A DNA stretch of 59,309 bases, taken from positions 1-59,309 of IMG/VR virus record IMGVR_UViG_3300025012_000917. One strand, written 5' to 3'. Below the pieces are notes generated by a model. The model ran no database searches. It saw nothing but the letters and a program-made list of their open reading frames with translations, and was not told where the DNA came from. This DNA is from a virus. Shown here in pieces: positions 26,293-42,985 of this stretch (position 1 is its first letter; the number at the start of each line of letters is the position of its first letter). The position numbers were made by a program, and so were the translations under genes.

Positions 26293-27348
26293 TTATATGA
26301 AGCTCGATTGTGCGAGCGGATCTTCTATGAGTTCTTTCATCTTGCGATTGAAATAATTCCATCTACAGTCGATTTTATCACACTCTTCGACCGTCGTCAT
26401 TTCTATGACCTTGCGATGTTGTTCGCTTCCCCACACTTCATGGAACGGCTGGAAGATTGTTCCGATTGGCCGACTTTCAAAGAAGCAGCACTGCAGGATT
26501 TTTCCCGTGGCCGTAACGACCGTGTGGATTGGCGACATAAAACATTTCACCGTCGCATGCTGATGCGAAAGATTGCAAAGCACTTTCGTAAATCCATTAA
26601 AACCTTGCTGATCAGCTTGCGCCTGTAATCTTGCGAGTTCTTCCGGTTCGATATTATGATTGGAAGAATGCTCATACTTGATCTGGATATAATTGACGCG
26701 GAGATCTTCTGCCATTTTCATAAGAGGTATAAGCTCATGTTTATTGATAGAATTGAGGACTACTTTGATACCAACCTGAAAACCATTATTTGATTTAACA
26801 CCATCTTTTTCGAGATCCCGAAGCCTTACGATTTCTTTGATATTTTCAATGGCTTTATGAAACCAGTAATCTTTTCGCTTATTGCGTTTTATAGCGTCAT
26901 GCGTCTCGACCGTCGCGGCATCAAGCCCACACCGGATATATTTAAAATGCTGAACCATGCTTTCTAATGGCATCGGATTGCAGGCATGTGTGATGATACC
27001 GAGCTGATATCCCATTCCCCACGCGCGCTCATAGATGTCCTGAAAGTCAGGGTGTAGAGTCGGTTCTCCTCCCCCGGAGAATTCTAAGGATTCAGCGCCG
27101 GCGGTCTTGGCCTGAAGGAGCCATCCTAAAAACTTTTCCTTGTCAATATACTGATGACTCTTCTCATGATTCGTATCCGAAAAAAAACAGTACGTGCAGT
27201 CAAGATTGCAAACCTCAGATACCCAACATGAAATAAAACGCGGAGCAGGAAATGCAATGTTCTTATCGCCTTCGTAAATGGACTGATACAGTTGGCGGCC
27301 TTCTTTGAGGAACGTCAGGATTCGATCTTCGCCCCACGCATGATTCAT
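26293..27348 (-). CDS. radical SAM enzyme with SPASM-like C-terminus
   Basis: A 351-residue protein with the radical SAM cluster motif EVCNLDCTYCFF near residue 48 (C-x3-C-x2-C), the GGE-type SAM motif (EFSGGGEPTLHPDF) and a C-terminal cysteine set (CNLSHQHATVKC, CCFFES, ECDKIDC) as in auxiliary Fe-S SPASM/twitch domains. It reductively cleaves SAM to modify a substrate, often a peptide or sugar. It is coupled by ATGA to a 42-residue Cys-containing ORF upstream. Substrate unknown. Confidence 0.88.
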   Translation of the reverse strand: MNHAWGEDRILTFLKEGRQLYQSIYEGDKNIAFPAPRFISCWVSEVCNLDCTYCFFSDTNHEKSHQYIDKEKFLGWLLQAKTAGAESLEFSGGGEPTLHPDFQDIYERAWGMGYQLGIITHACNPMPLESMVQHFKYIRCGLDAATVETHDAIKRNKRKDYWFHKAIENIKEIVRLRDLEKDGVKSNNGFQVGIKVVLNSINKHELIPLMKMAEDLRVNYIQIKYEHSSNHNIEPEELARLQAQADQQGFNGFTKVLCNLSHQHATVKCFMSPIHTVVTATGKILQCCFFESRPIGTIFQPFHEVWGSEQHRKVIEMTTVEECDKIDCRWNYFNRKMKELIEDPLAQSSFI

Positions 27349-27473
27349 CGTTTCACCACTTCAAACTCCATCCCACACGCAATAGGATGTGTATCCTCTT
27401 TTGATTCGAGAACTTTCTTACACCATTTACACTGCAGCAGATTGGCTGGCAGTTCGATAGATATCATCTTCAT
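27345..27473 (-). CDS. 42-residue Cys-containing small protein upstream of radical SAM enzyme
   Basis: ATG 27473 has GGAG upstream and lies inside the 3' end of the methylase gene; its TGA overlaps the radical SAM ATG. The sequence includes LLQCKWCKKVLESKED and HPIACGMEFEVVKR, three Cys in a mini zinc-ribbon style. It may be a zinc-binding accessory or, given the coupled SPASM-type enzyme, a peptide substrate. Both roles are speculative. Confidence 0.6.
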   Translation of the reverse strand: MKMISIELPANLLQCKWCKKVLESKEDTHPIACGMEFEVVKR

Positions 27474-28704
27474 TGGCTCCGGTAAAATTACAGTAGCGTT
27501 TGATAATTACGTCACAATATTTAGGGTCTAATTCCATTAATCTTGCTTCCCGGTTCATTTGTTCGCATGCAATTAATGTACTTCCAGATCCACCAAAAGC
27601 ATCTAAAACAATATCTCCTTCACGTGAGTTTTTACGTAATGCCCGATGTGCAAGTTGAACTGGTTTTTGGGTTGGATGGACATATTCGTTTCTTTTATCA
27701 CGAGCTTGAAACCAGACATCTGGAAGATCTGCAAACTCTTCTTTCCCTATAAAGAAACAATCGGTGTAGTTCGATAATCGTTTATTTGAATAATGAGGCT
27801 GTGATTTCTTCCATCCAAACATAATTGGCTCATAACATCTGTGGTAATCCACTCCCATAGAAAAGACCATCTGCTCTTTAAGCCAGATTAAAATCTGAGA
27901 CATATACCATCCTGAATTGATCCAAGCCAATCGATTGATCCAATTCATCTTATTTCCGAACCACCAATACAAACAAACATCTTCCAAAGAATATTCGTAA
28001 AGATTTTTTAAAATATCAATATAGAATTCAATCGCTTCTTCTTCTGTTTTATCATCATTTAAAATATCATTCGTCCCATAATTTCCTTTTGAATAGCTGT
28101 TTCCAGATGAGCTTTTATAATTAACGCTATATGGAGGATCCGTAAAAATTAACTTCGCTTTGCCCCCCCCCATGAGTAATTCATAATGTTCTTTCTTCGT
28201 CGAGTCGCCACATAAAAGACGATGCTTTCCGAGCATAAAAAGAATCCCCTGTTCTGTTCTTGATTTCTCAGGAGTTTCAGGCGTTGCATCCGTTTCTTCT
28301 TTTATTTTCTTTTTAGAATTATCAATTCCCGTATCGATCTCAAGATTAGAAAATCCCCAATTAGTCAATGAACTGATATCGAAATCTTTCTGTAAAATAT
28401 CCCAATCCCATTCTCCCTGAGCTTTATTAAGGCGGATGTTCAATTCCTTCTCGCGCACAAGATCCTGGATATCCACCCAGAAAACAGGAACGGTTTCCAT
28501 CCCCATTTTCTTTGCAACTTCAAACCTTTGGTTGCCACCCACAATTACGCCTTCGCGGCCGGGAGCTTTGTTACAAACTAATGGTTGGCAAAATCCAAAT
28601 TCAGTGATTGATTTCTTGATCTGCTCGAAATCTTGAGGAGTTATTTTACGTGGGTTATAAGTAGCATGTTGAAGTTTATCGATTGAAACCTGTTCGACTT
28701 CCAT
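27427..28704 (-). CDS. ParB-like domain fused to DNA adenine/N4-cytosine methyltransferase
   Basis: From ATG 28704 (TAATG overlap) it has 425 residues. Residues 1-110 match ParB/sulfiredoxin-like N-domains (HATYNPRKITPQDFEQIKKSI, VIVGGNQRFEVAKKMG). The C-terminal part is a beta-class-type methylase: catalytic TDPPYSVNY near residue 190 and SAM-binding VLDAFGGSGSTLIAC near residue 385. Such fusions are common phage orphan methylases protecting DNA or marking it for packaging. Its insertion in the sugar cargo block is noteworthy. Confidence 0.9.
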   Translation of the reverse strand: MEVEQVSIDKLQHATYNPRKITPQDFEQIKKSITEFGFCQPLVCNKAPGREGVIVGGNQRFEVAKKMGMETVPVFWVDIQDLVREKELNIRLNKAQGEWDWDILQKDFDISSLTNWGFSNLEIDTGIDNSKKKIKEETDATPETPEKSRTEQGILFMLGKHRLLCGDSTKKEHYELLMGGGKAKLIFTDPPYSVNYKSSSGNSYSKGNYGTNDILNDDKTEEEAIEFYIDILKNLYEYSLEDVCLYWWFGNKMNWINRLAWINSGWYMSQILIWLKEQMVFSMGVDYHRCYEPIMFGWKKSQPHYSNKRLSNYTDCFFIGKEEFADLPDVWFQARDKRNEYVHPTQKPVQLAHRALRKNSREGDIVLDAFGGSGSTLIACEQMNREARLMELDPKYCDVIIKRYCNFTGANEDDIYRTASQSAAV

Positions 28705-28886
28705 TATTTTTTTCTCCCGAACTTCATCCATATTGCAAATACCAAGAGTGCAATGATTAAAATCACAGAGCCAGTATTCCCGAACGTTCCGACAATCAGA
28801 TCAAACGACTTATCCGCCCATCCGCGCTGGGGCGGATAGGGAATATTCGGATAAGTCATCTGAATAGGCCCACCAAAAAAAATCAT
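28704..28886 (-). CDS. 60-residue single-pass membrane protein
   Basis: ATG 28886 overlaps the preceding stop, and its TAA overlaps the methylase ATG. A Pro-rich N-terminus (YPNIPYPPQRGW) precedes one membrane helix (GSVILIIALLVFAIWM) with a basic tail KFGRKK. It could be a small inner-membrane anchor. Function unknown. Confidence 0.65.
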   Translation of the reverse strand: MIFFGGPIQMTYPNIPYPPQRGWADKSFDLIVGTFGNTGSVILIIALLVFAIWMKFGRKK

Positions 28887-29380
28887 AAAATAAAAGGAAC
28901 CATCGCGACGCTCGAGATGATGATATTTCCATCCTCAAGGATCGTCGCCCAATTGCCAATCTGTTGAGAGTACTTGGAAAAAGGGTTTCTCACCCCGAAG
29001 TAAACGGTTGCAGAAACGGCAGAGATAAGCTGAAAAACACCAAGCCAAGGGTGATGCCCCGCTATCCCTGCCAATAGCCCACAGAGCCCAAGGGAACCTC
29101 CGTAGACAGCACGTAATGCGATCTTCTTGGCTACTGACCCATCATTCACCCCGTACTTGAAGATCACAAGGGACGGGATGTACCAGCCCCCTGCCAAAAC
29201 AGAAAGGATCCCGAAGTTATGATGAAGGTAAGAAATCAAAATGATCCCGGCTCCAAACACTCCGGGACCAAGATATCTACGGATCCACTTTCCATATCCT
29301 TGTCCGCCAAGGCAATATGTCACACAAAAGAAAACGACTAAGACAAAACCTAGAACGGCGATCGCCATCTCTTGAATCAA
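28883..29380 (-). CDS. polytopic membrane protein
   Basis: Starts at TTG 29380 (AGGAG upstream, overlap with preceding stop); ATG 29368 is an alternative. The 165 residues contain about four or five membrane segments (AIAVLGFVLVVFFCVTYCL, FGAGIILISYL, VYGGSLGLCGLLAGIAG, LISAVSATVYF). It sits between a radical SAM enzyme and a methylase in the cargo block. It could help transport or synthesise a lipid-linked product, but no motif supports a reaction. Confidence 0.7.
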   Translation of the reverse strand: MIQEMAIAVLGFVLVVFFCVTYCLGGQGYGKWIRRYLGPGVFGAGIILISYLHHNFGILSVLAGGWYIPSLVIFKYGVNDGSVAKKIALRAVYGGSLGLCGLLAGIAGHHPWLGVFQLISAVSATVYFGVRNPFSKYSQQIGNWATILEDGNIIISSVAMVPFIL

Positions 29381-31326
29381 TGAAAACTCTCCTGCGGTTT
29401 AGCCTTCGCTTTTTCTTTGAGTTGTTCCGAACTATCCACCGAACTTATCCGCTCAGTATCCTCAGATTCAATTGCGATCTTACGCTGCAGTTCGCGGACG
29501 TCCACGCGCCCGCGTGAGAAATCGTAATCCGACATATCAGTTTTTGCTTTGCGCTTGATAATGGCTCCAACAGAATCAACATCATATTCACCCATCGCAT
29601 CGAGCGTTTCAAGAATGGACTTACAATCTCTTATATCGATATGATCTTCTTCGATGATTAATCCAGGTAAGCGGCCGGCAAGATCCATAAGGATATCTTG
29701 AAAGAACGTCCTTAGAATCCACTCCTGACAATCCATGATCACATGCGAATAATAATTCTTTTCCTTGTGACCAGTTCCCTTATCCGATTCGTATTTCCAC
29801 TTCTTGAAACGCGGGAAATACTTCTCAAATTTCTCGAAGATCTCAAGCGAGTCTTCACGGACTGGAAGCCAAGCTGTTCCTTTTTTGATCGTTTCGCGCG
29901 AGCCTTCGATCGGAATTACTTTATATCGTGTAGGAACATCCGCTTCGAAGAAGATCGTTCCGTGAAGGGGCATGAGGTAAGGCTCAATAGAGAGTCCCAC
30001 TCCCATCTTCGCCATGCGCCTGAATCCATTAATGTCCACGACCATATCTTCAGGACGTTCATAGGGCGTATGGATAAGAAGTGTGTAATAGGGTTTGATT
30101 CCATGTCTTAATATTTGCTCCGTCACTTTCCAGATACGCTCCGGCGTCTGGGGTTTGTTCATGCTATTTAGTTTCCACTGGCTTACCGACTCCACGCCAA
30201 TTGAAAGTACACGAAATCCCGCGCGCGCACATCGTTCAATTGCCTGTTCGTCAAGACGATTTATATTGGTAAGACAGATGAATCCAAGTTCCTTTTTTAT
30301 CTCGCCTTTTTCTTTTGCTTCAATCATTGCTTCAGTGAATCCGCGTTCCCATTGTGGTGTCAAAAGGTAGTCATCATCGCAGAAGAATATCTGATGTGTA
30401 TCTGGATATTTTTCCAAAACCCGTTTTATAATTTTTATCGTATCATTACCAGCGAGGCCCACGGCCTTAGTAGGCTTTCCAGTTGCTGCGCGTTGCAATC
30501 CAGTGAGCGTGCAGTACGCACAGTTAACGGGGCAGAAATTGTGCATGAAAAGACGAAACGTGTTGATGTCTTGGAACTGCGGGTTGTCATAGAGGCACGC
30601 AGTTTTTTTCCAATAAAGGTCTTGGTGCATGGCTTGAAAGTCGAGCTCATAGATCCAGTCCGTCCATTCCTCTCCCGTCACCGGCTTGGCGTGCCGGCGC
30701 AAGACAATACCCGTCGCTTCATTTGGGCTGAAAAGGGAGATTTGTTTTTCGTTAGCAATATTTAAAAGAGCGAACGGATCCTGCCCTAGGATCACCATGT
30801 CAAGATCGATTGCCTTATCGAAAAGAGTTTGATAATTAAGCGTTGCTTGTGATCCACCGCCTACAAGCAATGCCTGAGGCGCTAAAGCCCCAGCTGCATT
30901 TATTTTTGAGATGTCGTATTCGATGGTGGCGTCTAGGATCGAGAATCCGATAATGTCCCAGGGTCTCCAAACAATATGATCATCATCAATTTTCATTCCC
31001 ATAATCGTAAAAAGTTGAAGCAAATCAGTGTAAGGGTTCCATCCAGATTCATCATTAAATCCAGGCATCCCTTTCTCGAATATCTTTTCAAGGCTCACGT
31101 GCGGATATTCAGAATCGTCCGCAATCTCTCCCGGCTGAAGATTCATGTCATATGTGGCGGCATGATGCCCGTGTACGTTAAGCCTGGATGCCCACCAGTG
31201 ACTTCCCTGATGCGCCGTTACCCACCGACTATCAAATATCGATTCCTTGGTGTTTGGACCAACGAGCAAAACATTTTTAGGACGAATGCCTTCAGGTCGT
31301 TCGTATTTTTCGATGAGCTTGTTCAT
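29377..31326 (-). CDS. B12-binding-type radical SAM enzyme
   Basis: From ATG 31326 (GGAAGGGGGG upstream) it has about 649 residues. An N-terminal Rossmann-like part (NVLLVGPNT, AQALLVGGGSQATLNY) resembles a cobalamin-binding domain without a clear DxHxxG. The radical SAM core has FCPVNCAYCTLTG, with CxxxCxxC, near residue 270, followed by FFCDDDYLLTP and GVESVSQWKL. B12 radical SAM enzymes often methylate or rearrange glycan, lipid or peptide substrates. It is coupled to the nucleotidyltransferase gene, which hints at a sugar-related substrate. Confidence 0.85.
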   Translation of the reverse strand: MNKLIEKYERPEGIRPKNVLLVGPNTKESIFDSRWVTAHQGSHWWASRLNVHGHHAATYDMNLQPGEIADDSEYPHVSLEKIFEKGMPGFNDESGWNPYTDLLQLFTIMGMKIDDDHIVWRPWDIIGFSILDATIEYDISKINAAGALAPQALLVGGGSQATLNYQTLFDKAIDLDMVILGQDPFALLNIANEKQISLFSPNEATGIVLRRHAKPVTGEEWTDWIYELDFQAMHQDLYWKKTACLYDNPQFQDINTFRLFMHNFCPVNCAYCTLTGLQRAATGKPTKAVGLAGNDTIKIIKRVLEKYPDTHQIFFCDDDYLLTPQWERGFTEAMIEAKEKGEIKKELGFICLTNINRLDEQAIERCARAGFRVLSIGVESVSQWKLNSMNKPQTPERIWKVTEQILRHGIKPYYTLLIHTPYERPEDMVVDINGFRRMAKMGVGLSIEPYLMPLHGTIFFEADVPTRYKVIPIEGSRETIKKGTAWLPVREDSLEIFEKFEKYFPRFKKWKYESDKGTGHKEKNYYSHVIMDCQEWILRTFFQDILMDLAGRLPGLIIEEDHIDIRDCKSILETLDAMGEYDVDSVGAIIKRKAKTDMSDYDFSRGRVDVRELQRKIAIESEDTERISSVDSSEQLKEKAKAKPQESFH

Positions 31327-31993
31327 ATTCTTCGACCCCCCTTCCGATGTCATACGCTTCGACATGGGATATAACCGCCATCCTACCACAAAGCCTTGGG
31401 AAAACGTCGCGCGCTAGATCTTTATCTTCGATACGAATCTGGTTAATAAAATCTTTCCGGCAAAACATCATGCCTGCCCATGCTACCAACCCATTAGATG
31501 ATTTTTCCGAGAATCGAATGATCGTCCCAATATTATCAAGCTCCATCCCACCCGCTGATTTATCTTCCGGGTTGTTGAAGCTTACGAGCCCTGCAATTGG
31601 ATTGTCAGGATTATCCTTCCAATTTCTGGCCATATCTTTTAGGGATCCGAAAAAATGATCGGAATATGTATCGGTGTATCCAACCATAAAATCTTCTGCC
31701 GTGTCTGCGTGCCAGAAAAGTGTTCCTGCTGTTCCAAGCAATGCTGACCGTTCGTCAATGATCTCAACTTTTCGTTTGGTGCCCTTGCAATATCTTCCGA
31801 TCCATCGATCTATTTCGTCCGCGCAATGGTGGACGTTGACATAAACTTTATCGAACTCTTGCGATGCAAAAACAGCGTTCAGCCAATGTTCAAGCATCGG
31901 CGTCCCATGAATCTTTAGTAAACATTTTGGATATTTTTCCGTGATCGGACGAAGCCTTGTTGCGTAACCTGCAGCTAAAAGATAAGCATTCAT
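31292..31993 (-). CDS. sugar-phosphate nucleotidyltransferase (HddC/ManC-like)
   Basis: A 233-residue protein with the NTP-transferase signature LLAAGYATRLRPITEKYPKCLLKIHGTP at its N-terminus, then LLGTAGTLFWHAD, a TDTYSDHFF loop taking the metal-binding Asp role and an AWAGMMFCRKDF strand. These enzymes join a sugar-1-phosphate to a nucleotide. With GmhA- and HddA-like genes nearby, GDP-D-glycero-D-manno-heptose formation is the best guess; mannose or another sugar cannot be excluded. Confidence 0.82.
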   Translation of the reverse strand: MNAYLLAAGYATRLRPITEKYPKCLLKIHGTPMLEHWLNAVFASQEFDKVYVNVHHCADEIDRWIGRYCKGTKRKVEIIDERSALLGTAGTLFWHADTAEDFMVGYTDTYSDHFFGSLKDMARNWKDNPDNPIAGLVSFNNPEDKSAGGMELDNIGTIIRFSEKSSNGLVAWAGMMFCRKDFINQIRIEDKDLARDVFPRLCGRMAVISHVEAYDIGRGVEEYEQAHRKIRTT

Positions 31994-33030
31994 GTTGACA
32001 CTTCCTGTTGAACGGATACCCTTGCTTTCCGTTCGTTCTTGATCTGAATCGCGTCTTGAACGGCCGAACTGAATCTTCGAATGGTATTTCCAGCATCATA
32101 GAACGGAAGCTCGTTCATGGCATGTTTCACAACTTCGCCATAGAATTTTTCATCTTCATATTTATACAAAAGCCTATTAGCTAATTCTTGCATACTTCCG
32201 ACATCATAAATATTCACCCCGAGATCCGGCCAAAGTCTTTGTTGCGTATGGCTGTCCCGGTTTCCGATGCATGGCGTTCCTACGCACGCACAGGAGATCT
32301 GATGACGAGCCGTTCCAATCCATTCTGTGGGATAGAAATTAATAATCGATCTCCCGAGGATCCTCAAGAAAGGATACTGTCCGAGCTTCGAGATGTGCTG
32401 AACTTTAAGGTTGGGAAATATCTTTGAGAAATCATTATTCCGAAGATCGAACCCAATCACGTCCATCTTTAATTGATTAGCACAAGACAATGCGATCATG
32501 GGATGATTCGGATTATTGTCCCCATAAACCACCGTCATGTTCTGATTTTTCATATATTTAGGGGTATAGAAAACAGATCCGGACATTTCAAGACTCATCG
32601 GAACATGAATAAATCTTACAACCGTTTCGCGCGAGACAAACGATCTGTAATATTCAACCTTATCCTCTTCCGCAATAGATACGATATCGCACGCTGCCCA
32701 CGCCTCGTAATATTCCGTATGGAATCCATTGATCGAATTGTCGTAAAGCTGTGCGGATCCTTCCGGATAAAACATACTGATCGTATTGGAATCTTTAAGA
32801 AAATTTGCGATTCTGATAATATCGGCGATGAAATTAAGATGCCCGGACATCATCACCACATCAAAATCTTTCAGGTAAGAATTTTCTTCTTCACGAAGCG
32901 CATCAAACGAAAGATGAACGCCATCCCATATCGAAACCCATTGCAAGAAACTCGTCACATCGTCTCTTTCTCCGTTCATATTGAATTTAACTTTATGAGA
33001 CTTGTCAGCAGTGATAAGAGCGAATTTCAT
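31990..33030 (-). CDS. GT-B-like glycosyltransferase
   Basis: From ATG 33030 (ATGA overlap) 346 residues. N-terminal Rossmann-type start (KFALITADKSHKVKFNMNG), a central MTVVYGDNNPNHPMIAL, and a C-terminal donor-like domain (INFYPTEWIGTARHQIS, CVGTPCIGNRDSHTQ). The two-domain order and Pro/Gly-rich donor loop resemble GT-B transferases, although no canonical E-x7-E is seen. Assignment to a CAZy family is not possible by eye. Likely part of glycan assembly. Confidence 0.65.
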   Translation of the reverse strand: MKFALITADKSHKVKFNMNGERDDVTSFLQWVSIWDGVHLSFDALREEENSYLKDFDVVMMSGHLNFIADIIRIANFLKDSNTISMFYPEGSAQLYDNSINGFHTEYYEAWAACDIVSIAEEDKVEYYRSFVSRETVVRFIHVPMSLEMSGSVFYTPKYMKNQNMTVVYGDNNPNHPMIALSCANQLKMDVIGFDLRNNDFSKIFPNLKVQHISKLGQYPFLRILGRSIINFYPTEWIGTARHQISCACVGTPCIGNRDSHTQQRLWPDLGVNIYDVGSMQELANRLLYKYEDEKFYGEVVKHAMNELPFYDAGNTIRRFSSAVQDAIQIKNERKARVSVQQEVST

Positions 33031-33257
33031 ATACTCACTTGGTCCACAACCTGATCTTTTGGAATAAATTGATAGCGTGTGGTATCGAGCGTTACAGGAA
33101 CCGTTTCGGTATTCGTTACCGGATAGCAAAGAAATGATCCGCCATGATCTTCTGCAATCTTCAAAACCTCGATATTCATTCCTCGGCTATCTACGCCATG
33201 CCGGCCGCGTGGATTACGAATATAATTGCCAAGACCAACGGAGCTTATTTTAGGCAT
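33027..33257 (-). CDS. 76-residue cargo protein of unknown function
   Basis: A small beta-type protein (IRNPRGRHGVDSRGMNIEV, GSFLCYPVTNTETVPV) between a GT2 gene and a GT-B-like gene, coupled to both by short overlaps. No motif recognised. It may be an accessory subunit. Confidence 0.6.
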   Translation of the reverse strand: MPKISSVGLGNYIRNPRGRHGVDSRGMNIEVLKIAEDHGGSFLCYPVTNTETVPVTLDTTRYQFIPKDQVVDQVSI

Positions 33258-34062
33258 TAGGAATTCCTTTTGTCATCTGCTCCCAATCTATTTGTTTCCA
33301 ATTATTCAGCCATTGATCAAGATTAATTCTTGGATAATCTTTAAAATCCCACCATCTCCACCACATTTCTTCTGCAGGATGAACCTCTCTACTTCCATCT
33401 CCATTTTTAGCTTCACTCTCTGAAATAACACGCCTGTAAGAATCGCAAAAAGTTTTGTAAGGCTCGATCTTTGTTTCTCGATATTTCCATAGAAGATGTT
33501 TCATCTCGGCGTACGTTCTTACCCCGTCAAAATTCTGGGCAACGTCCGTCTTGCGGTGTTCCATGAAATAATCTTCCGGAAGATAACAAGGCCGGAACCG
33601 GCCGTGAAGTTCCGCATGCACGAGTTCGGTATAGAAGATTCCTTTACCACGACGGTGTAATCGGTTCTGATAGTTTGGACTTTCGTTCGTGCCATGCGGC
33701 ATGAGTCGTGTCCCATCCCGATATTCATGGCGCATCACGGCATAAGCATCATAATTTTCGCTTGCGGCTAAATCGTGCATCTCTTTTAAAAATTTTTCAC
33801 TGAACCGCTCATCTGGATAAAACCAAAGAAGCCAGTCTCCTTTTGCATAATGAGATAAAAATTCCTTGTATTGATCCCCGCAGATAAGATGTGGTTTCCT
33901 GAAAATATCTTTGGTGAATTCATAAGCAATCTCAAGAGTTCCATCATTAGAATCCATATCAACAATGAGGATTTGATCAACGTATGGGGTGATGTTCTCA
34001 AGGCATGCCCTTAGATTTTCTGATTCGTTATAGATGAATGAAACCGCTGAAATCGTTGGCAT
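33250..34062 (-). CDS. GT2 family glycosyltransferase
   Basis: A 270-residue protein with the GT-A start PTISAVSFIYNESENLRACL, the DQILIVDMDSNDGT nucleotide-binding motif and a metal-binding-type DWLLWFYPDERF segment, followed by a NFDGV-R-type acceptor region. It resembles small WaaE-like GT2 enzymes that elongate LPS core sugars. It abuts the GmhA-like gene. It transfers a sugar from a nucleotide donor; donor and acceptor are unknown. Confidence 0.85.
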   Translation of the reverse strand: MPTISAVSFIYNESENLRACLENITPYVDQILIVDMDSNDGTLEIAYEFTKDIFRKPHLICGDQYKEFLSHYAKGDWLLWFYPDERFSEKFLKEMHDLAASENYDAYAVMRHEYRDGTRLMPHGTNESPNYQNRLHRRGKGIFYTELVHAELHGRFRPCYLPEDYFMEHRKTDVAQNFDGVRTYAEMKHLLWKYRETKIEPYKTFCDSYRRVISESEAKNGDGSREVHPAEEMWWRWWDFKDYPRINLDQWLNNWKQIDWEQMTKGIPNA

Positions 34063-34596: not shown

Positions 34597-35650
34597 GCTC
34601 TTCTTTTTCCTCAAAAATACATTCCGCACCTTTTTGGTCAAATTTAAAATGAAGTTCGTGAAGATCATTCAAAGCCTCCCTTACAAGTCCCTGCATTGAT
34701 GGTGGTGTCATGAGATAGAGGAACCCGCCGCCTCCGGCTCCGCATACCTTTGCGGCTGTCGCTCCTGCCGCATAGGCTTTCTCAACATATTTGTCGATAA
34801 TCTCATTCGAGATATCCCGATGCACCGTTCTCTTAAGCCGCCAGTTTTCGTTCACATGATCCATAAACCGCTCAATCACGGCATACTCCATGTGCTCCCA
34901 CATGCGCAAAGCATTGTCGCGCTGCAGGGTATGAATCTTATTCTTTTCAGGAATCTCGCTCAATTGGTCATAGAGAATGGTTGGCGCAAACATTTTGTCC
35001 GGAAGATCTTTTCCAGCCCGACTATCAAAATATGTATGCTCAATGTTCAAATAAAAAAGCATCGATTGCCCTTCTAACTCATCGATAAACTCATCACGCG
35101 GATAAGGATCCACATTCACCGTTCCGTTAGAATTAAAAACCAGTCTATTAAAACCACCCGCTGCCGAAGCGTATTGATCCTGCTTTCCGATTGGGGATCC
35201 GCATTTCTCGATCTCAATTTCAGAAGCTGTCTCCGCTAAATACCGTTTTCCCATAACCGAATTGAAGCTGGCAATTACCGAATCGCTTTTTCCTGTCATC
35301 TTCTCAAGCGCCAAACAAAGGGCCACAATCATCGCTGAACTCGCACCAAGCCCGGACCCTTTTGCCGGGACGTCACTTGAGATGACAAGCTCAATATTAT
35401 CCTCAATCCCGTAATGCAGAAGCGTATTCCGGATAAGCACGTGATTCAGATCTTTAACTTTTTCTTTCATCTCATGCTGACGGTATCTGACTGAAACTTT
35501 CTTATCAAATTTCCTACAAGCTGAAACATAGACATGTTTATTGATAGATGTAGAAACTACAATCCCGGGACCATAACTTTTGTAAAATGCTGGAATATCG
35601 GTTCCGCCGCCGGCAAAAGAAATGCGTAATGGGCTTCTTGTAATAATCAT
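34577..35650 (-). CDS. hddA: HddA-like GHMP heptose kinase
   Basis: A 357-residue GHMP kinase: N-terminal IITRSPLRISFAGGGTDIPAFY, phosphate-binding PAKGSGLGASSAMIVALCLA, a GSPIGKQDQYASAAGGFN segment and C-terminal AAKVCGAGGGGFLYLMTP. This pattern is that of D-glycero-alpha-D-manno-heptose-7-phosphate kinase. The product would go to a phosphatase (not found here) and then to a nucleotidyltransferase. It overlaps both neighbours. Confidence 0.88.
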   Translation of the reverse strand: MIITRSPLRISFAGGGTDIPAFYKSYGPGIVVSTSINKHVYVSACRKFDKKVSVRYRQHEMKEKVKDLNHVLIRNTLLHYGIEDNIELVISSDVPAKGSGLGASSAMIVALCLALEKMTGKSDSVIASFNSVMGKRYLAETASEIEIEKCGSPIGKQDQYASAAGGFNRLVFNSNGTVNVDPYPRDEFIDELEGQSMLFYLNIEHTYFDSRAGKDLPDKMFAPTILYDQLSEIPEKNKIHTLQRDNALRMWEHMEYAVIERFMDHVNENWRLKRTVHRDISNEIIDKYVEKAYAAGATAAKVCGAGGGGFLYLMTPPSMQGLVREALNDLHELHFKFDQKGAECIFEEKEEHAVRQG

Positions 35651-36297
35651 TTTTTAAACACCAGAAGCATATCGCCACCTTCAACCATTTCTATTTTTTG
35701 GGTCATGATCGGCTTTTTAATTTTCGAAAAATAAGCAAGCCACTCCATATACTCCATGAATCTTTCATTGTTTCTATTAAACTTCTCAGCCTTGATATAA
35801 TCTAAACAGTTCTGAAATTCTAACGGAACTGCGATCATCACAAACCCGCCGGGCTTCGTCACAAAAATCATATTCTTAAGAGACATAAGAGGATCCATGG
35901 AATGCTCAATACTCCCCCAAGAAGTCACAACTTCAAAATAGTTCATCCAATAGTCCGGAAGATAATCCATGCTTATCATCTGAATATTTATTTTATACTC
36001 ATAATTTTTGAATCTTTCCTCGGCGAGATCACAAGCTTTTCCACTCAAATCAATTCCATATAAAGCCGGGCTTGAGAATTTATAACGAGCGATCACTTTT
36101 TCAAGGAACTCACCATGCCCGCATCCGCAGTCAAGCCATGCGTCCGTAGGCCGTGGTCTTCCAAAGAGATCCTCTATTGATTTAAAGAAAAATCTCCAGT
36201 CATATCCCGTAAACGCTTCTCTACCATGTGATTCATATTTAAGATCATAAAAATTCTGGGTATCAATCACATCATTTGCTTTTAGCCATTCTTTCAT
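35647..36297 (-). CDS. class I SAM methyltransferase A
   Basis: A 216-residue protein with motif I AWLDCGCGHGEFLEKVI, motif II-like LYGIDLSGKACDLAEERF, and post-motif strands (FEVVTSWGSIEHSMDP, KPGGFVMIAVPLE). The pattern fits small-molecule or sugar O-methyltransferases. ATGA overlaps with both neighbours tie it to the heptose kinase. Acceptor not known. Confidence 0.85.
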   Translation of the reverse strand: MKEWLKANDVIDTQNFYDLKYESHGREAFTGYDWRFFFKSIEDLFGRPRPTDAWLDCGCGHGEFLEKVIARYKFSSPALYGIDLSGKACDLAEERFKNYEYKINIQMISMDYLPDYWMNYFEVVTSWGSIEHSMDPLMSLKNMIFVTKPGGFVMIAVPLEFQNCLDYIKAEKFNRNNERFMEYMEWLAYFSKIKKPIMTQKIEMVEGGDMLLVFKK

Positions 36298-36806
36298 TTC
36301 TTACATTCCCATATTAGATGATTTTCTTCCGGATCCCGCCATTGCCGTCCAATTAGTTTCACTTCTGAAAAATTCCAGTTTGGTTTCAAGAGAAACTCCT
36401 TTAGTCTTCGTTCGTTCCATCCGAATTTATGGAACATTCCGGGTCCGTCCTGTCCTCCGAAGATGGCTTTAAGAACCCAATCTTCGTTGCGTTCTCCGGT
36501 GAGCAGTTCGGGGCGGGTGTATCTTTCCACAAACCAGTCAAAATCTGGAACGTCAAACCGGAATACGCCACCGGGCTCGAGGACGCGGACGACTTCAAGC
36601 ATGACTTCCTGAACTTCATAAAATCCAAAATGTTCGAACACGCCGAACATAAGCACATTTGAACAAGAAAGACTAGGAACAGAGAGGCGATGAGCGTCGC
36701 ATACAAAATCCAGAAGATCCCGTTGAGAGCGATCGTAATAGCGGTCACAATGCCGATACCCAGGATGAGGATTGCTTCCGCTGCCGATTTCAAGATTGAT
36801 TCCCAC
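36294..36806 (-). CDS. class I SAM methyltransferase B
   Basis: Starts at GTG 36806, inside the preceding gene. 170 residues with NLEIGSGSNPHPGYRHCD (motif I and Asp), SNVLMFGVFEHFGFYEV and EPGGVFRFDVPDFDWF. It is shorter than sibling C at 36996-37601 but shares the MxLNIGSG-type opening used by glycan-cluster methyltransferases. A sugar or glycan O-methylation role is inferred from context. Confidence 0.82.
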   Translation of the reverse strand: MGINLEIGSGSNPHPGYRHCDRYYDRSQRDLLDFVCDAHRLSVPSLSCSNVLMFGVFEHFGFYEVQEVMLEVVRVLEPGGVFRFDVPDFDWFVERYTRPELLTGERNEDWVLKAIFGGQDGPGMFHKFGWNERRLKEFLLKPNWNFSEVKLIGRQWRDPEENHLIWECKK

Positions 36807-36996
36807 ATTTAAACTCTGATAAGCCGTAAGTTAAAGGATTTAATTTTATTGTATGGCACGAATAAGTTCCTTGGTATGGATGCCCGACAATAGCTCTATA
36901 TTTACTTTTCATACGAAAAAATTTAATTTTATCTCCAACCTTATATTCAGTTTCACAACACAATGTTTTCTTATCATTTTTTAAAATGATATCCAC
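36790..36996 (-). CDS. 68-residue cargo protein of unknown function
   Basis: A small basic protein with early CCETEYKVGDKIKFFRMKSKY, suggestive of a small beta-barrel, then HPYQGTYSCHTIKLN. It overlaps methyltransferase B by 17 bases and methyltransferase C by one base. No family recognised. Confidence 0.6.
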   Translation of the reverse strand: MDIILKNDKKTLCCETEYKVGDKIKFFRMKSKYRAIVGHPYQGTYSCHTIKLNPLTYGLSEFKCGNQS

Positions 36997-37601
36997 TACT
37001 TAACCGCCTCCAAATAGTAACTCATTACCGGCCTGTTATCGAGCGTATGTTCATAGTCCCCGAAGAACTGTGGAAACTCAGTGTTGCAATATCGCATCTC
37101 CGTAACTTTCGAGAATCCCGCGCGCACGAGGAACATCTGCACCATGTCGATTGAAGGCGCAAGGAGATGATCATAATGATCAGTGAAGAACATGTCAGAA
37201 TATGCGATTGCCGGATTATCATCATATCCATATAACTTTCGATTTTCAGGCCCATAACAATCATTGATAAAATTCTTGTTCTTAGCTTGCCAGTTCGCAA
37301 AGAAGATACGCGGATCCGGGCATATGATTCGCATCGGCGCTCCGGGCTTTAATACCCGTAATGCTTCCTCGTAGACCTTCCGCTGTTTGATGTGCTCGAT
37401 ATGCTCGAGGATATGGGAAGCAAAAATGCAATCAGCCACTTCACTCGGAAAAGGCCACGTTCCGGTAATATCGAACTTATGGTAAACGGAAGGACCTCTC
37501 CATTCCTCTGTCCCAGGCGTATAGGCATCATCGACACATTCCCATCCGTTTCCTTCAAATGGAGATCCTCCGACCTGACCAGAGCCAATGTTTAACTTCA
37601 T
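36996..37601 (-). CDS. class I SAM methyltransferase C
   Basis: A 201-residue protein starting MKLNIGSGQVGGSPFEGNGW (motif I), with ADCIFASHILEHIEHIKQ and LKPGAPMRIICPDPRIFF. Very like glycan-locus methyltransferases that O-methylate sugars. ATGA overlap with the radical SAM gene upstream. Acceptor unknown. Confidence 0.85.
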   Translation of the reverse strand: MKLNIGSGQVGGSPFEGNGWECVDDAYTPGTEEWRGPSVYHKFDITGTWPFPSEVADCIFASHILEHIEHIKQRKVYEEALRVLKPGAPMRIICPDPRIFFANWQAKNKNFINDCYGPENRKLYGYDDNPAIAYSDMFFTDHYDHLLAPSIDMVQMFLVRAGFSKVTEMRYCNTEFPQFFGDYEHTLDNRPVMSYYLEAVK

Positions 37602-39022
37602 GCGCAGATCTCCTCTCGCTGTAATTCCCCACCCAAACGATCAAGTGGCTGTTTCTTATTCAATACCGAAATATGTCGATCAAAATCTCTTTCCACGCGC
37701 CAGTATTCACGTGCATTGATGTACTGTTTTGTTTTTTCGAATATCCAGCTATGAAATTTCTTACCAAGATTCAAATGAATTAATACATTCACTACAATGT
37801 AATAAAGCCAAGGCCACCTAACAACTGCCGACCAATATTTATGAAGGCGCTCAATCTTTTCCTTATCTTTAATAGGTAAAGAAATCTCATCAAAGAACGT
37901 AGCATTTACCATGAATGAAAGATCCTCAACAGATTTAACAATACCTTTTTTTACGACATAATCAGCTATCACAGTTCCGGGATAAGCCTGAAGCATACTC
38001 GCCCAACTCAAAGTCGGCCTTTGATCTTTATTAAACCTAAGAGTCTCCAATGCGTCAGCAAGCGGATCATCCACAGGAAGCCCGAGCAGATTTTGCATTC
38101 TAAATTTGATGCCGTATCGGTGGAGCAGATCACAACCACGCTCGATGAGTTCGTTGGGTTCTTCACGGTCTAAAACTTCTCTTCTCGTTTTTTGATTTCC
38201 ACTTTCAATTGCGAATGACACGATGTGGATTCCAGACTCTTTGAGTAGCTTGATGCGATCTTCAGTGATGAGACGTGGACGTAACTGGGCAAAGAAAGGA
38301 ATTCTGATTCTCTGATAAAGTCTCGCAAATCGTTCCAGCCAAGCCATGTCGATTCCAAATATGTCGTCTTGGAAGCTGACGAGTTCACCACCATAATCCT
38401 TAAATGTTTTTTCGATATCTTCAACCATGTATTCAGGAGAATGATAACGGAGGCGCTTCTTACCGAGCTCCACCATCCGCTGCCATTCGGCATTTGAATT
38501 GTAGCAATAAGTACATTTATAAGGGCACCCTCGGCAGGATATAAAATTGCGGATAACATTGTTCTTAATGCCAGGAAAGTCATCGTTGTAAAGTATCGAA
38601 CGATCCGGTTTCGGAAGGTGGTCAAGTTCAGCCCCATATTTCCCCGTGGTAACAGCCTGAAGATCTTCGTGTTTCCTCCCCTCTACAACGTCAACAATTG
38701 CGACTTCTCCATCTCCCCGAATTATGAAGTCGGCTTCCTGCTGTCCTGATTTCGTAAAGAGAAAATGCGGTCCCCCAAAGATCGTAAGTACGTTCGGATA
38801 TCGAGATTTAATTTCTCGCGCCACCGATCCCCATCGCCCCTCGTCTCCTGTAAGGACTTGAAAAGCCACGTGCGTAGCTCCAAACTTTTCAATTTCTCCG
38901 ATAACCTTAGACTGCATACAAGCTTTGGTTTCATGCCCGAAAGTTTTAAGAGAGGCAGAAAGGTATTGGATTCCAAGCGGTTCATGACTGACTCCATCGT
39001 GGGTAACAAACAATATTCTCAT
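37598..39022 (-). CDS. B12-binding-type radical SAM enzyme
   Basis: A 474-residue protein: N-terminal cobalamin-binding-like Rossmann part (ILFVTHDGVSHEPLGIQYLS, LTIFGGPHFLFT), then radical SAM motif SCRGCPYKCTYCYNSN near residue 165, FQDDIFGIDMAWLERF and SFAIESGNQKTRREVLDREE. A C-terminal segment has a membrane-like YYIVVNVLIHLNLG. Such B12-radical SAM enzymes in glycan loci probably modify sugars or lipids. No clear DxHxxG for base-off cobalamin is seen. Confidence 0.87.
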   Translation of the reverse strand: MRILFVTHDGVSHEPLGIQYLSASLKTFGHETKACMQSKVIGEIEKFGATHVAFQVLTGDEGRWGSVAREIKSRYPNVLTIFGGPHFLFTKSGQQEADFIIRGDGEVAIVDVVEGRKHEDLQAVTTGKYGAELDHLPKPDRSILYNDDFPGIKNNVIRNFISCRGCPYKCTYCYNSNAEWQRMVELGKKRLRYHSPEYMVEDIEKTFKDYGGELVSFQDDIFGIDMAWLERFARLYQRIRIPFFAQLRPRLITEDRIKLLKESGIHIVSFAIESGNQKTRREVLDREEPNELIERGCDLLHRYGIKFRMQNLLGLPVDDPLADALETLRFNKDQRPTLSWASMLQAYPGTVIADYVVKKGIVKSVEDLSFMVNATFFDEISLPIKDKEKIERLHKYWSAVVRWPWLYYIVVNVLIHLNLGKKFHSWIFEKTKQYINAREYWRVERDFDRHISVLNKKQPLDRLGGELQREEICA

Positions 39023-39382
39023 TCATTTTTCTTTCAGTTGAACGGAAAGACTGACCATTTCGGTCTGCATTCCTTGAAGGGTTTTGACCATCTCTTTATG
39101 TTCTTCCCTTTGAAGTTTGTTCGCTTCTTTAATATCTAAAATATATGCATGCGTTTGAGCAAAATTATTAACCGTGGAAGTATTTAAATTACCAAAAGAT
39201 TCTGTCAAACTTTTGATATGATTTTCAATAATATTTGCCAGCCTATCTTCCCGTTTGCTGTTTTCTTTAAAGACATAAATCAACATTCTCCAAAAAGCAA
39301 ACGTGATGAAAATAGCAAGAACTGTCCCAAGCCCATAAGTCATAATCATGTTCATCGCAACTTTTGCTTCTTCCAAGAACAA
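39023..39382 (-). CDS. membrane-anchored coiled-coil protein
   Basis: TTG 39382 has AGAGGT upstream; ATG 39355 is an alternative. 119 residues with a single N-terminal membrane helix (YGLGTVLAIFITFAFWRMLIYVF) and a long coiled coil (ANKLQREEHKEMVKTLQ). This layout resembles small phage holin-like or membrane-tethering proteins, but its place among glycan genes suggests an anchor for the enzymes. Role open. Confidence 0.65.
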   Translation of the reverse strand: MFLEEAKVAMNMIMTYGLGTVLAIFITFAFWRMLIYVFKENSKREDRLANIIENHIKSLTESFGNLNTSTVNNFAQTHAYILDIKEANKLQREEHKEMVKTLQGMQTEMVSLSVQLKEK

Positions 39383-39383
39383 T

Positions 39384-40292
39384 TTAGACCTCTACTGGAA
39401 TTGGGCTCTGCCATTCCCTTAAAACTTCCATCGATTTTTTCAAGACATCTTCAACCGTAATCTTAGTGTTGCAATTCACTTCATGACGGCAGTTGGTATG
39501 GCATCTCACAATCTGACAATCCTGATAGCCCGTTTGTTCCGCAAACATATGAATCACACGCCCAGAAATCGGTCCAGACGTCACCGGATTCGTGGATCCT
39601 TGAATGACGATCGTTGGAACCTTCATGGCATCTGCCATATAACTCAACCCAGAATCAAGACCTATAAAAAGCGCGCACTTGGAAAGAAACGCTGCAAGCT
39701 CCAAAAACCCAAGTTTTCCGCGCAGATCAATAGATCCTCTTACTATCTTATCATTGCGACCGCCAACCTGCACGACCCCGTATCCCGATTTTCGAAACTC
39801 TTCAGTCAATTCATTAAACAAAGGCCAGTCTTTTGTCACAACCCCACTTGTCGAATGAACAGCGATTCTCGGAACATCGAAAGATATCTGGTTATTTGCA
39901 ACTTCAAAATCTTTCTGAGATGGAAACAAATAGCATTCCCGATCCTCAATTTTTCTATGCATTCCCATACGCATCCAATAAAAATCAAGAAGATGCTGAT
40001 GCCGCGTATCCTCATTTTGGTGCCACATGTTACATTCCCCGCGGACTTGATAGGGAGCATAAATTCTGTCATATCCCTCGTAAGTCATTTCTTGGAAGAT
40101 GACATCGTAATACCATTCTTCCGATTCGTGAATAGCATCTATATTAGGGTTGTTCCTCAATAGATCCGCATAAGGTTTGTTCACATAATAATGAATCTCA
40201 CTATCCGGAAATTCTTTTTTAAGTTCCCTGCAAATCGTTGCGCCCAAGATTACATCTCCCATGGTCTTAAGCATGACAAACATGATCTTCAT
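39384..40292 (-). CDS. GT9 heptosyltransferase-family glycosyltransferase
   Basis: A 302-residue GT-B protein with KIMFVMLKTMGDVILGATICRELK at the start, the donor-site pattern of ADP-heptose transferases, and C-terminal LSKCALFIGLDSGLSYMADAMKVPTIVIQG, the GT9 signature. Family members add heptose to LPS or glycoprotein. With heptose genes in the same operon this makes a heptose donor likely, although the donor here could be GDP- rather than ADP-linked. Confidence 0.88.
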   Translation of the reverse strand: MKIMFVMLKTMGDVILGATICRELKKEFPDSEIHYYVNKPYADLLRNNPNIDAIHESEEWYYDVIFQEMTYEGYDRIYAPYQVRGECNMWHQNEDTRHQHLLDFYWMRMGMHRKIEDRECYLFPSQKDFEVANNQISFDVPRIAVHSTSGVVTKDWPLFNELTEEFRKSGYGVVQVGGRNDKIVRGSIDLRGKLGFLELAAFLSKCALFIGLDSGLSYMADAMKVPTIVIQGSTNPVTSGPISGRVIHMFAEQTGYQDCQIVRCHTNCRHEVNCNTKITVEDVLKKSMEVLREWQSPIPVEV

Positions 40293-41446: not shown

Positions 41447-41745
41447 CAATCCCTCCAGAAAGTATTCACAAAAGCCCAGCTCATTGCCGATCCCCCAAGA
41501 ATAGATGCCGCAATAAAATAAACCTCAACATTTTTAAACTGTAAGAACATAAGCGCAGCCGCAATCCAAAACCCGGTACAAAATGGACAATTGAAAGGCT
41601 TCCGATCAAACCATTTGAATTGCATTGAAAGGATCTTGAAGAAAAGAGCCCCACCAGAAGCTGCTAAATAAAAAAGGATAAGGCTCGTCACTTGCCACCG
41701 CAGCAATGGGCGCAGGGACGAATCATGAATTTGATCTGTACCCAT
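41446..41745 (-). CDS. small membrane protein with CPFCTGFW motif
   Basis: A 99-residue protein with two or three membrane segments (VTSLILFYLAASGGALFF, FWIAAALMFLQF, VYFIAASILGG) and the CPFCTGFW motif seen in small membrane proteins of phages and bacteria (DUF1360-like). It may bind metal through the Cys pair. Its role next to glycosyltransferases is unknown. Confidence 0.68.
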   Translation of the reverse strand: MGTDQIHDSSLRPLLRWQVTSLILFYLAASGGALFFKILSMQFKWFDRKPFNCPFCTGFWIAAALMFLQFKNVEVYFIAASILGGSAMSWAFVNTFWRD

Positions 41746-41749
41746 ATTT

Positions 41750-42985
41750 TCATACGACCACCTCGAGATTTATCGGTTTTATAAAAGGCATTTCATGAGA
41801 CAAGAATAACATGTTCCATTCATCCACAATCCGACTCCAAGGATACTGCGTGGCAAATTCATAGCCTTTCTGAGCAACATCATCCCGATATTTTTTATCC
41901 TTAAATATTTTAATCATCGCAGCGGCTGATGCCATCACATCCGGAACCGGACGTTCAGTAAGATGAGATCCTGTCCATGTAAGCGTTCCAGCCGGCGGAA
42001 CTAAATGAGCCCGTCCATCAGCTCCAAGTTCCGCAGACGCTGAATGATTTAAAAGAATACATGGAAGTTTAGTTGCCATTGCTTCAAACGTCGGCATCCC
42101 GAATCCTTCTCCAGAAAGAAGAATGAACGCATCTGCAACCTGATAAAGTTTCGCGAGTTCCTCATTAGGAAGCATATGAAGCTCTGAGCTTGAATGCGCA
42201 ACTTGATCATAATACATAATGCTTTGGTTCTTTAATCCATTCACCAAAAGAAGCTCATCGATGTTCCATCCCATCACATCATTGAAATACATATGCGGCC
42301 AAAAAATAACTTTATCTTTAAATTCTGGAAGTTCAGAAAATATTTTCCAGGCCTGAATGAGTTGCGGGATATTCTTTCGTGATTGATTGCGAGACACGGT
42401 AAGGAACATAAATTTATCTTGAATCCCGAATTTCTGACGGAGAAGTCTTCGTTCTTTAGGATCTAAAGGTTTGAACATGTCTGTGTCGACGCCATGATAA
42501 ATCGTTCGAAGACGGCTTCTCGTCTCTTCATCCGATACGCTTTTTAAGACAGCATCCTTCGCATAATTGGTGTACGCAACCGGAATATCTATATCTTCAA
42601 TGGTCTTTACGATACCCGGAGGAAGGCCGCCGCATATCGGTTCGCCATCCACAGGAATATAACTACACCATTGAAATGATTTTCTAGTCCGACAAACATT
42701 CGGATCCGTAATGTACCAAAGCCACCAAAAATCACCGATTGTAAGAAGAATATCAGGTTGGAATTGTTCAACGACACGATCCAGAATATTGGATCCATAG
42801 AGGTTATCGTTTGTCCACCAGAAATGAATGTTATGCGGAAGATTCGGAGTAATATCTGCTCTGTGGTACCATCCGATATAGCCTATCTGGTGCCCACGCG
42901 CTGCCAACCCTATCGCAAGCTCTCGACCAAGACGTCCCATACCCGTAGGAATAAAAGGGGAATCGCTCATGCAAAGTATGCGCAT
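41750..42985 (-). CDS. GT4 family glycosyltransferase
   Basis: A 411-residue GT4: start ILCMSDSPFIPTGMGRLGREL (glycine-rich acceptor-side loop), central FMFLTVSRNQSRKNIPQLI, and donor motif LLSGEGFGMPTFEAMATKLP with the E-x7-E pair. ATG shares one base with the stop of the 36-residue HNH fragment. Transfers a sugar from an activated donor; first gene of the cargo run. Confidence 0.9.
   Translation of the reverse strand: MRILCMSDSPFIPTGMGRLGRELAIGLAARGHQIGYIGWYHRADITPNLPHNIHFWWTNDNLYGSNILDRVVEQFQPDILLTIGDFWWLWYITDPNVCRTRKSFQWCSYIPVDGEPICGGLPPGIVKTIEDIDIPVAYTNYAKDAVLKSVSDEETRSRLRTIYHGVDTDMFKPLDPKERRLLRQKFGIQDKFMFLTVSRNQSRKNIPQLIQAWKIFSELPEFKDKVIFWPHMYFNDVMGWNIDELLLVNGLKNQSIMYYDQVAHSSSELHMLPNEELAKLYQVADAFILLSGEGFGMPTFEAMATKLPCILLNHSASAELGADGRAHLVPPAGTLTWTGSHLTERPVPDVMASAAAMIKIFKDKKYRDDVAQKGYEFATQYPWSRIVDEWNMLFLSHEMPFIKPINLEVVV

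What the first reader, a model, noticed from the sequence alone, without database searches (positions are those of the whole stretch)
26293..42985. Glycan-synthesis cargo operon embedded between phage connector and tail-tube genes
Seen: about 21 coupled genes, including five glycosyltransferase-type genes, three SAM methyltransferases, GmhA-like isomerase, HddA-like kinase, a nucleotidyltransferase and three radical SAM enzymes. They lie on the late strand between the neck and tail-tube genes. Known: GmhA, HddA and a guanylyltransferase make GDP-D-glycero-D-manno-heptose. Inference: the phage builds a methylated heptose-containing glycan late in infection, for its own virion or for host-surface remodelling. 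The GmhB/HddB phosphatase is missing and would have to come from the host.
Basis: partly seen in the sequence, partly recalled or inferred. Interest (0 to 1): 0.9.

Follow-up and report, generated by a model that had tools for sequence, protein, structure and literature searches.

The report
Phage glycan-making genes among virion genes
This uncultured phage carries a long run of sugar-building and sugar-editing genes between the genes for its head-tail neck and its tail tube, and its relatives keep a four-gene core of that run at the same spot, so the phage probably coats its own particle with an unusual glycan.

Summary
The block is real: 26293-42985 is an unbroken, translationally coupled run of about 21 genes between neck (43092-43592) and tail-tube (25382-26272) genes. 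It is not misassembly. A second 58.7-kb phage (G003) has it collinear at the same place, and separate contigs reproduce both junctions.

The new result is a conserved core. In phages with capsid proteins only 52-56% identical to the window's, the same junction holds a compact cassette of GT4, GT4, GT9 and a radical SAM enzyme with a B12-type domain. Its divergence mirrors the capsid, neck and tube genes, and no relative close enough to judge lacks it. More distant relatives carry unrelated glycan enzymes in the same capsid-to-tube interval. The heptose-type genes are an accessory expansion seen only in the window and G003.

The heptose claim is weak: the GmhA-like protein lacks both C-terminal histidines, GmhB is absent, and the nucleotidyltransferase is not clearly HddC. 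The fifth glycosyltransferase (31990-33129) could not be confirmed.

Best explanation (0.55): late virion glycosylation, with the glycan tailored by SAM enzymes. Rivals: host-surface change (0.25) and DNA glycosylation (0.05). Chemistry and target need experiments.

The parts
43092..43592 (-). neck-position structural protein, right boundary of the block (orthologues sit right before the glycan cassette in all relatives)
   Evidence: gene 43636 next to it matches PHROGs head-tail adaptor
41750..42985 (-). CORE gene 1: GT4-type retaining glycosyltransferase with E-x7-E motif; best PDB relative is chlorovirus glycosyltransferase B736L
   Evidence: at the same place in G003, L003, L025, L052-L060
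41446..41745 (-). small membrane protein, weak DUF1360 match; similar small membrane proteins in G003 and L003
40289..41449 (-). CORE gene 2: GT4-type glycosyltransferase with E-x7-E motif
39384..40292 (-). CORE gene 3: GT9 (heptosyltransferase-family) glycosyltransferase; the Asp of the MGDV/LGDV motif is invariant in four lineages, the position of the His of the DSGxSH motif is Tyr or Phe in all four
39023..39382 (-). small protein, one N-terminal membrane segment plus coiled-coil-like region
37598..39022 (-). CORE gene 4: radical SAM enzyme with B12-binding-type N-terminal domain; CxxxCxxC invariant; nearest solved structures AprD4 and TokK
   Evidence: present right before the tail tube in all compact relatives
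36996..37601 (-). SAM methyltransferase (85% identical in G003, the most conserved protein compared)
36790..36996 (-). small ORF coupled to the methyltransferase genes, unknown
36294..36806 (-). SAM methyltransferase
35647..36297 (-). SAM methyltransferase (Methyltransf_23)
34577..35650 (-). GHMP sugar kinase, HddA-like
   Evidence: 60% identical in G003
34063..34668 (-). SIS-domain protein, GmhA-like but without the two conserved C-terminal histidines
33250..34062 (-). GT2 glycosyltransferase
   Evidence: about 73-75% identical in G003
33027..33257 (-). small conserved protein of unknown function
   Evidence: 56% identical in G003
31292..31993 (-). sugar-1-phosphate nucleotidyltransferase (NTP_transferase), base specificity open
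29377..31389 (-). large radical SAM enzyme with degenerate B12-binding-type domain; 75% identical in G003, no match in named phages or PHROGs
28704..29380 (-). two small membrane proteins (28883-29380 and 28704-28886)
27427..28731 (-). ParB-N domain + N6/N4 DNA methyltransferase (G003 keeps only the ParB-N part)
26293..27348 (-). radical SAM/SPASM protein, moderate similarity to viperin and maturase models
25382..26272 (-). tail tube protein (PF18906), left boundary; relatively Ser/Thr-rich (20.6%), candidate glycan acceptor
58411..59214 (-). further GT4-type glycosyltransferase upstream of the terminase, same PHROG (2170) as the two core GT4 genes; also in G003

Best explanation
The block is a late, phage-encoded virion-glycosylation operon. 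Shown here: a four-gene core (GT4, GT4, GT9, B12-type radical SAM) is a fixed, vertically inherited part of the structural operon, always between neck and tail-tube genes. The window and G003 have expanded it with a sugar-activation set (SIS isomerase, GHMP kinase, nucleotidyltransferase), a GT2, three methyltransferases and further radical SAM enzymes. Inferred: during late expression the soluble transferases build a short glycan stepwise in the cytoplasm on a virion protein, most likely the tail tube, the capsid or a head decoration protein made from the same operon. The radical SAM enzyme edits a sugar (deoxygenation, epimerisation or C-methylation) and the methyltransferases add O- or N-methyl groups. 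The accessory kinase and nucleotidyltransferase supply an unusual nucleotide sugar of undetermined identity.
For: Same block, collinear, in G003. Both junctions are reproduced in separately assembled contigs L002 and L006. Unbiased scans: all four MCP relatives with at least 52% identity carry GT4a right after the neck gene; all tail-tube relatives with at least 45% identity and upstream sequence carry cargo right before the tube. Compact versions are only GT4-GT4-GT9-rSAM, then the tube. Identities of cassette, MCP, neck and tube fall into the same two clades. Coupled genes, few candidate internal signals. Catalytic motifs kept: E-x7-E, GT9 Asp, CxxxCxxC; an intein-like insert sits exactly at the third cluster Cys in L078, a kind of site where inteins typically persist in functional proteins. 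Distant relatives place unrelated glycan enzymes in the same interval: GT2-TPR-MT-GT4 fusion (L041), GT2-MT-MT-GT2 (L046), MptE-like protein (L040, L045); so do isolates phiPsal1 and Mae-JY09. Transferases lack convincing membrane segments; no polyprenyl-type initiating transferase, flippase or polymerase was recognised. G003 adds a metK-like SAM synthetase ORF and a second decoration-protein-like gene inside the block. Precedent: mycobacteriophages glycosylate capsid and tail tube (PMC12363180).
Against: No glycan or acceptor site is shown. GT9 and the heptose-type genes are families best known from lipopolysaccharide, and small membrane proteins are interspersed. Pelagimyophages carry glycosyltransferases and radical SAM genes in a structural-region island that its authors read as host O-antigen modification (PMC7029224). 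Six distant relatives show no recognised glycan enzyme in the interval, so it is not universal. Some accessory genes (DNA methyltransferase, SPASM protein) need not belong to a glycan pathway.
Confidence: 0.55

Rival explanations
1. Host-surface remodelling: the enzymes alter lipopolysaccharide or another surface glycan of the infected cell, blocking superinfection or re-adsorption of progeny.
For: GT9 matches lipopolysaccharide heptosyltransferases; GmhA/HddA-type genes are typical of surface polysaccharide loci; small membrane proteins in the block; the authors of PMC7029224 read a comparable island this way.
Against: Late structural-operon position fixed over a large divergence, when surface change would come late; no initiating transferase, flippase, polymerase or acetyltransferase recognised; GT9 also matches TibC, a protein heptosyltransferase; unlike the pelagimyophage island the core is not hypervariable.
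Confidence: 0.25
2. The enzymes modify peptide side chains of structural proteins or act on small molecules; the radical SAM genes are the main actors and the transferases decorate a peptide-linked product.
For: Three radical SAM enzymes, one with SPASM; weak NCBIfam matches to peptide maturases; direct adjacency to the tail-tube gene.
Against: Nearest solved relatives of the core radical SAM are AprD4 (acts on a sugar ring, general knowledge) and TokK; no precursor peptide recognised; three transferases in the minimal version point to a glycan.
Confidence: 0.12
3. DNA hypermodification: the transferases glycosylate modified bases of the phage genome.
For: Phage glycosyltransferases can hypermodify DNA (Pyle et al. 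2024, cited in PMC12619734); a DNA methyltransferase lies in the block.
Against: No Tet/JBP dioxygenase and no thymidylate synthase/hydroxymethylase family in the window or five relatives (relatives partly fragments); no full C5-methyltransferase; in G003 the block keeps only the ParB-N part; position among structural, not replication, genes.
Confidence: 0.05
4. Host DNA joined by misassembly or a recent chance acquisition without function.
For: Enzyme families are bacterial in origin.
Against: Same order in independent phages, both junctions in other contigs, equal GC, many proteins 50-85% conserved.
Confidence: 0.01

Closest known systems
Virion glycosylation of mycobacteriophages Che8, Corndog and Myrna (Freeman et al. 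2023; summarised in PMC12363180 and PMC12619734)
   Same: Phage-encoded glycosyltransferases; proposed targets (capsid and tail tube) are the same.
   Different: Here a longer pathway with GT9, radical SAM and methyltransferases, fixed between neck and tail tube. No glycan shown yet; homology to Che8 gp110 or Corndog gp38 not tested.
Chlorovirus autonomous capsid glycosylation (PBCV-1/NY-2A, B736L; PMC4691112)
   Same: Virus supplies transferases, sugar-nucleotide enzymes and probably methylation; the first core GT4 has B736L as best PDB relative, whose best ligand is GDP-mannose.
   Different: Eukaryotic giant virus; no radical SAM enzyme noted in the passages read; genes not described there as a structural operon.
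Pelagimyophage host recognition cluster (PMC7029224)
   Same: Island inside the structural region next to a neck gene, with glycosyltransferases and radical SAM cassettes.
   Different: That island is T4-like, hypervariable and non-syntenic, holds tail fibres, and was read as O-antigen modification; here the core is conserved and collinear.
Pontimonas phage phiPsal1 and Microcystis phage Mae-JY09
   Same: Glycosyltransferase (and methyltransferase) genes between the major capsid gene and the neck/adaptor genes; the GT4 is homologous (24-27% identity).
   Different: One to three genes only; no GT9, radical SAM or sugar-kinase set annotated there.
Caulobacter phage Cr30 GT2-HddA-GmhA cluster
   Same: Same sub-cassette GT2, HddA-like kinase, GmhA-like isomerase.
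   Different: Not among structural genes in the stretch seen; its GmhA keeps the C-terminal histidines.

Membership tests
Phage virion-glycosylation system (mycobacteriophage type) | phage-encoded glycosyltransferase genes with intact catalytic motifs | tested here: met
   Pfam GT4/GT9/GT2; E-x7-E; conserved GT9 Asp
Phage virion-glycosylation system (mycobacteriophage type) | glycan covalently present on capsid or tail proteins | not testable with these tools
   needs mass spectrometry of virions
Phage virion-glycosylation system (mycobacteriophage type) | homology of the transferases to Che8 gp110 / Corndog gp38 | not tested
   no mycobacteriophage record appeared among the 12 records matching the first core GT4, but the two proteins were not compared directly
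GDP-D-glycero-D-manno-heptose pathway | GmhA with its C-terminal catalytic/zinc histidines | tested here: not met
   both C-terminal histidines of E. coli and Cr30 GmhA are replaced in the window and G003; family score 58.8 bits vs cut-off 209
GDP-D-glycero-D-manno-heptose pathway | HddA kinase | tested here: inconclusive
   HddA is the best model but 117.9 bits vs cut-off 600; best PDB relatives are heptose kinases
GDP-D-glycero-D-manno-heptose pathway | HddC guanylyltransferase | tested here: inconclusive
   HddC 35.8 bits vs cut-off 300; MurU uridylyltransferase scores higher, 60.8 bits
GDP-D-glycero-D-manno-heptose pathway | GmhB phosphatase | tested here: not met
   the only DxDG[TVS] HAD-type motif in an ORF of 90 aa or more lies in the SNF2-type helicase 8915-10534; the host could supply GmhB
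Radical SAM enzyme with B12-binding domain | CxxxCxxC cluster motif and B12-binding-type N-terminal domain in 37598 | tested here: met
   Pfam PF04055 and PF02310 above cut-off; motif invariant in four lineages
Radical SAM enzyme with B12-binding domain | C-methyltransferase versus diol-dehydratase activity | not testable with these tools
   nearest structures are AprD4 and TokK; sequence does not decide
Pelagimyophage-type host recognition cluster | hypervariable, non-syntenic island with tail fibres | tested here: not met
   core collinear and conserved
Phage DNA glycosylation | enzyme creating a base hydroxyl (Tet/JBP or dCMP/dUMP hydroxymethylase) | tested here: not met
   PF12851 and PF00303 absent

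The most novel reading that the evidence does not exclude
A lineage of uncultured tailed phages runs its own complete glycan assembly line as an obligatory part of virion morphogenesis, in which a radical SAM enzyme edits the sugars (deoxygenation or C-methylation) on the tail tube or capsid. Radical SAM tailoring of a virion glycan would be new, and the capsid-to-tube interval would be a general site where phages swap virion-glycosylation cassettes.
Probability: 0.35. Interest if true: 0.85.

Novelty: new variant of a known kind. Interest (0 to 1): 0.6.

Why it matters
Virion glycosylation in phages is documented in few systems and with short pathways. This block suggests that in one phage lineage a glycan pathway with a radical SAM enzyme is a fixed part of the virion assembly operon, and that unrelated phages repeatedly place glycan genes at the same spot. 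If the glycan is on the particle it would bear on phage stability, antibody recognition and host adsorption, and would reveal new sugar chemistry. The compact four-gene version makes the question directly testable with a small construct.

Tried and rejected
Misassembly or host contamination: rejected. DNA hypermodification: no Tet/JBP or thymidylate synthase family. Fifth glycosyltransferase 31990-33129: structure prediction failed (pLDDT 40), no PDB, Pfam or PHROGs match, no profile match to GT4. Bacterial or prophage relatives: two scans of genome contigs found none, using only two short patterns each, so distant relatives could be missed; host unknown. Named phages: no match for the large radical SAM enzyme or for 31990. 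The fecal record MT835644 found with the kinase looks like bacterial exopolysaccharide DNA and was not used. Literature search found no description of this block, but many subscription papers are not held. Rfam search of the window: nothing.
Full report
Observation. The window is a 59,309-base IMG/VR virus record. From TerL (54515-56146) through the portal-minor head fusion, protease, decoration and major capsid genes, adaptor and neck, to the tail tube (25382-26272) and tail genes, everything is on the - strand. Between neck and tail tube lies a coupled run of about 21 genes whose junctions mostly overlap by 1-4 bases. GC equals that of the flanks, and promoter-like and terminator-like sites are no more frequent than in shuffles. 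Pfam confirms two GT4, one GT9 and one GT2 transferases, three radical SAM enzymes, three small methyltransferases, a GHMP kinase, a SIS protein, a nucleotidyltransferase and a ParB-N/DNA methyltransferase.

The block is shared. A capsid-protein scan found a second long phage record, G003 (IMGVR 3300036766_000466, 58,665 bases). It carries the block at the same place and in the same order, with cargo proteins mostly 48-85% identical (a few 31-38%) and structural proteins 43-79%. Contigs L002 and L006, essentially identical to the window in protein sequence but assembled separately, span the right and left junctions. G003 adds an ORF that reads as an S-adenosylmethionine synthetase (L008:5707-6828, from its sequence) and a gene similar to the head decoration protein (L007:16023-16316).

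A four-gene core. A profile of three capsid proteins and one of three first-transferase proteins reached further contigs. In L052, L053, L057, L059 and L060 the interval between neck and tail tube holds, apart from small ORFs, GT4-GT4-GT9-radical SAM and then the tube. L025, L055, L056 and L058 are cut by contig ends but show the same start. A final scan with four tail tubes asked for empty sites: every relative of at least 45% identity with sequence upstream carries the cassette, including L078, L079, L080 and L083. Identities of cassette genes fall into the same two clades as capsid, neck and tube, so the core has been inherited with the structural genes. The transferase-based scan is biased towards carriers; the capsid and tube scans are not.

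Wider pattern. In more distant relatives (capsid 27-36% identical) the same capsid-to-tube interval holds other enzymes: a 1058-aa GT2-TPR-methyltransferase-GT4 fusion in L041; GT2, two methyltransferases and a double GT2 protein in L046; an MptE-like (PF01973) protein just before the tube in L040 and L045. From memory, PF01973 also covers Maf flagellin glycosyltransferases; this was not tested. Six relatives (L026, L027, L030, L034, L038, L042) show no such enzyme. Among isolates, phiPsal1 has GT-MT-GT between capsid and neck genes, and Mae-JY09 a GT between capsid and adaptor genes. S-CBS4 has GT and methyltransferase genes between portal and capsid. The positional argument is descriptive; the contigs are fragments and no formal enrichment test was done.

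What the enzymes say. The first GT4 has the chlorovirus transferase B736L as its best solved relative, aligned over nearly its full length; B736L binds GDP-mannose best (PMC4691112). The GT9 is related to heptosyltransferases and to the protein heptosyltransferase TibC; the Asp of its MGDV motif is invariant, while the position of the His in the DSGxSH motif is Tyr or Phe in all four proteins aligned. The core radical SAM keeps CxxxCxxC, and its nearest structures are AprD4, which by general knowledge acts on a sugar ring, and the methyltransferase TokK. In L078 an intein-like insertion (C...HN/C) interrupts this gene exactly at the third cysteine of the cluster motif; inteins typically persist at such essential sites, which suggests the enzyme matters.

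The heptose claim. The SIS protein aligns with GmhA, but both C-terminal histidines found in E. coli and Cr30 GmhA are replaced in the window and in G003. The Asp in place of the E. coli Glu also occurs in Cr30 and is probably normal for this subfamily. The kinase is HddA-like; the nucleotidyltransferase is closer to MurU than to HddC; all are far below NCBIfam cut-offs. No GmhB-type HAD phosphatase was found: the only HAD-type motif hit lies in a helicase. The sugar is therefore open, and these genes are accessory, not core.

Mechanism. Most likely (0.55) the transferases act late in the cytoplasm on a structural protein of the same operon, and radical SAM and methyltransferases tailor the glycan. 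In the window the Ser/Thr-richest proteins among those counted are a repeat-rich head-region protein (48263-49495, 25.9%) and the tail tube (20.6%); both are candidates only. Shown: genes, order, conservation, motifs. Inferred: target, glycan, chemistry. Host-surface modification remains the main rival (0.25). DNA glycosylation is unlikely because enzymes that create a base hydroxyl are missing.

Novelty. Phage virion glycosylation is known in mycobacteriophages (PMC12363180, PMC12619734), and glycan islands with radical SAM genes are known in pelagimyophages (PMC7029224). What appears new is a conserved core joining three transferases and a radical SAM enzyme as a fixed part of a structural operon. 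I file it as a new variant of a known kind.

Noticed in passing
L078:2296-4680: Intein-like insertion of about 350 aa with a C...HN/C splice pattern, placed exactly at the third Cys of the radical SAM CxxxCxxC motif; the near relative L052 has the gene uninterrupted.
   Followed up: partly
window 22196-22753: Protein in the tail region with matches to a 'minor coat protein' PHROG and weakly to DUF6445/2OG-Fe(II) oxygenase; could be another virion-modifying enzyme.
   Followed up: no
window 48263-49495: Repeat-rich protein with 26% Ser+Thr in the head gene region, no family match; possible head fibre or glycan acceptor.
   Followed up: partly
window 26293-27348: Radical SAM/SPASM protein matching prokaryotic viperin models at 60-69 bits (below cut-off in NCBIfam); only 37% identical in G003 although it sits right before the tail tube.
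   Followed up: partly
window 42985-43137; L007:12362-12820; L008:3426-4133; L003:5792-6298: Small HNH/homing-endonuclease-like ORFs are scattered at the edges and inside the block in window and relatives (read from sequence), a possible route of gene gain.
   Followed up: no
window 51149-54364: Portal and Mu gpF-like minor head domains fused in one 1071-aa protein; in Bacillus pumilus phages the same two parts are separate genes.
   Followed up: no
window 2362-3554: Genes similar to cyanophage Pam3 gp34 and gp33 families next to an HNH/VRR-NUC protein (3585-4646); a SNF2-type helicase lies at 8915-10534.
   Followed up: no
L052:7938-8150, L057:7990-8178, L083:1518-1724: Conserved 62-70 aa ORF between the radical SAM gene and the tail tube in compact relatives, unknown function.
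   Followed up: no
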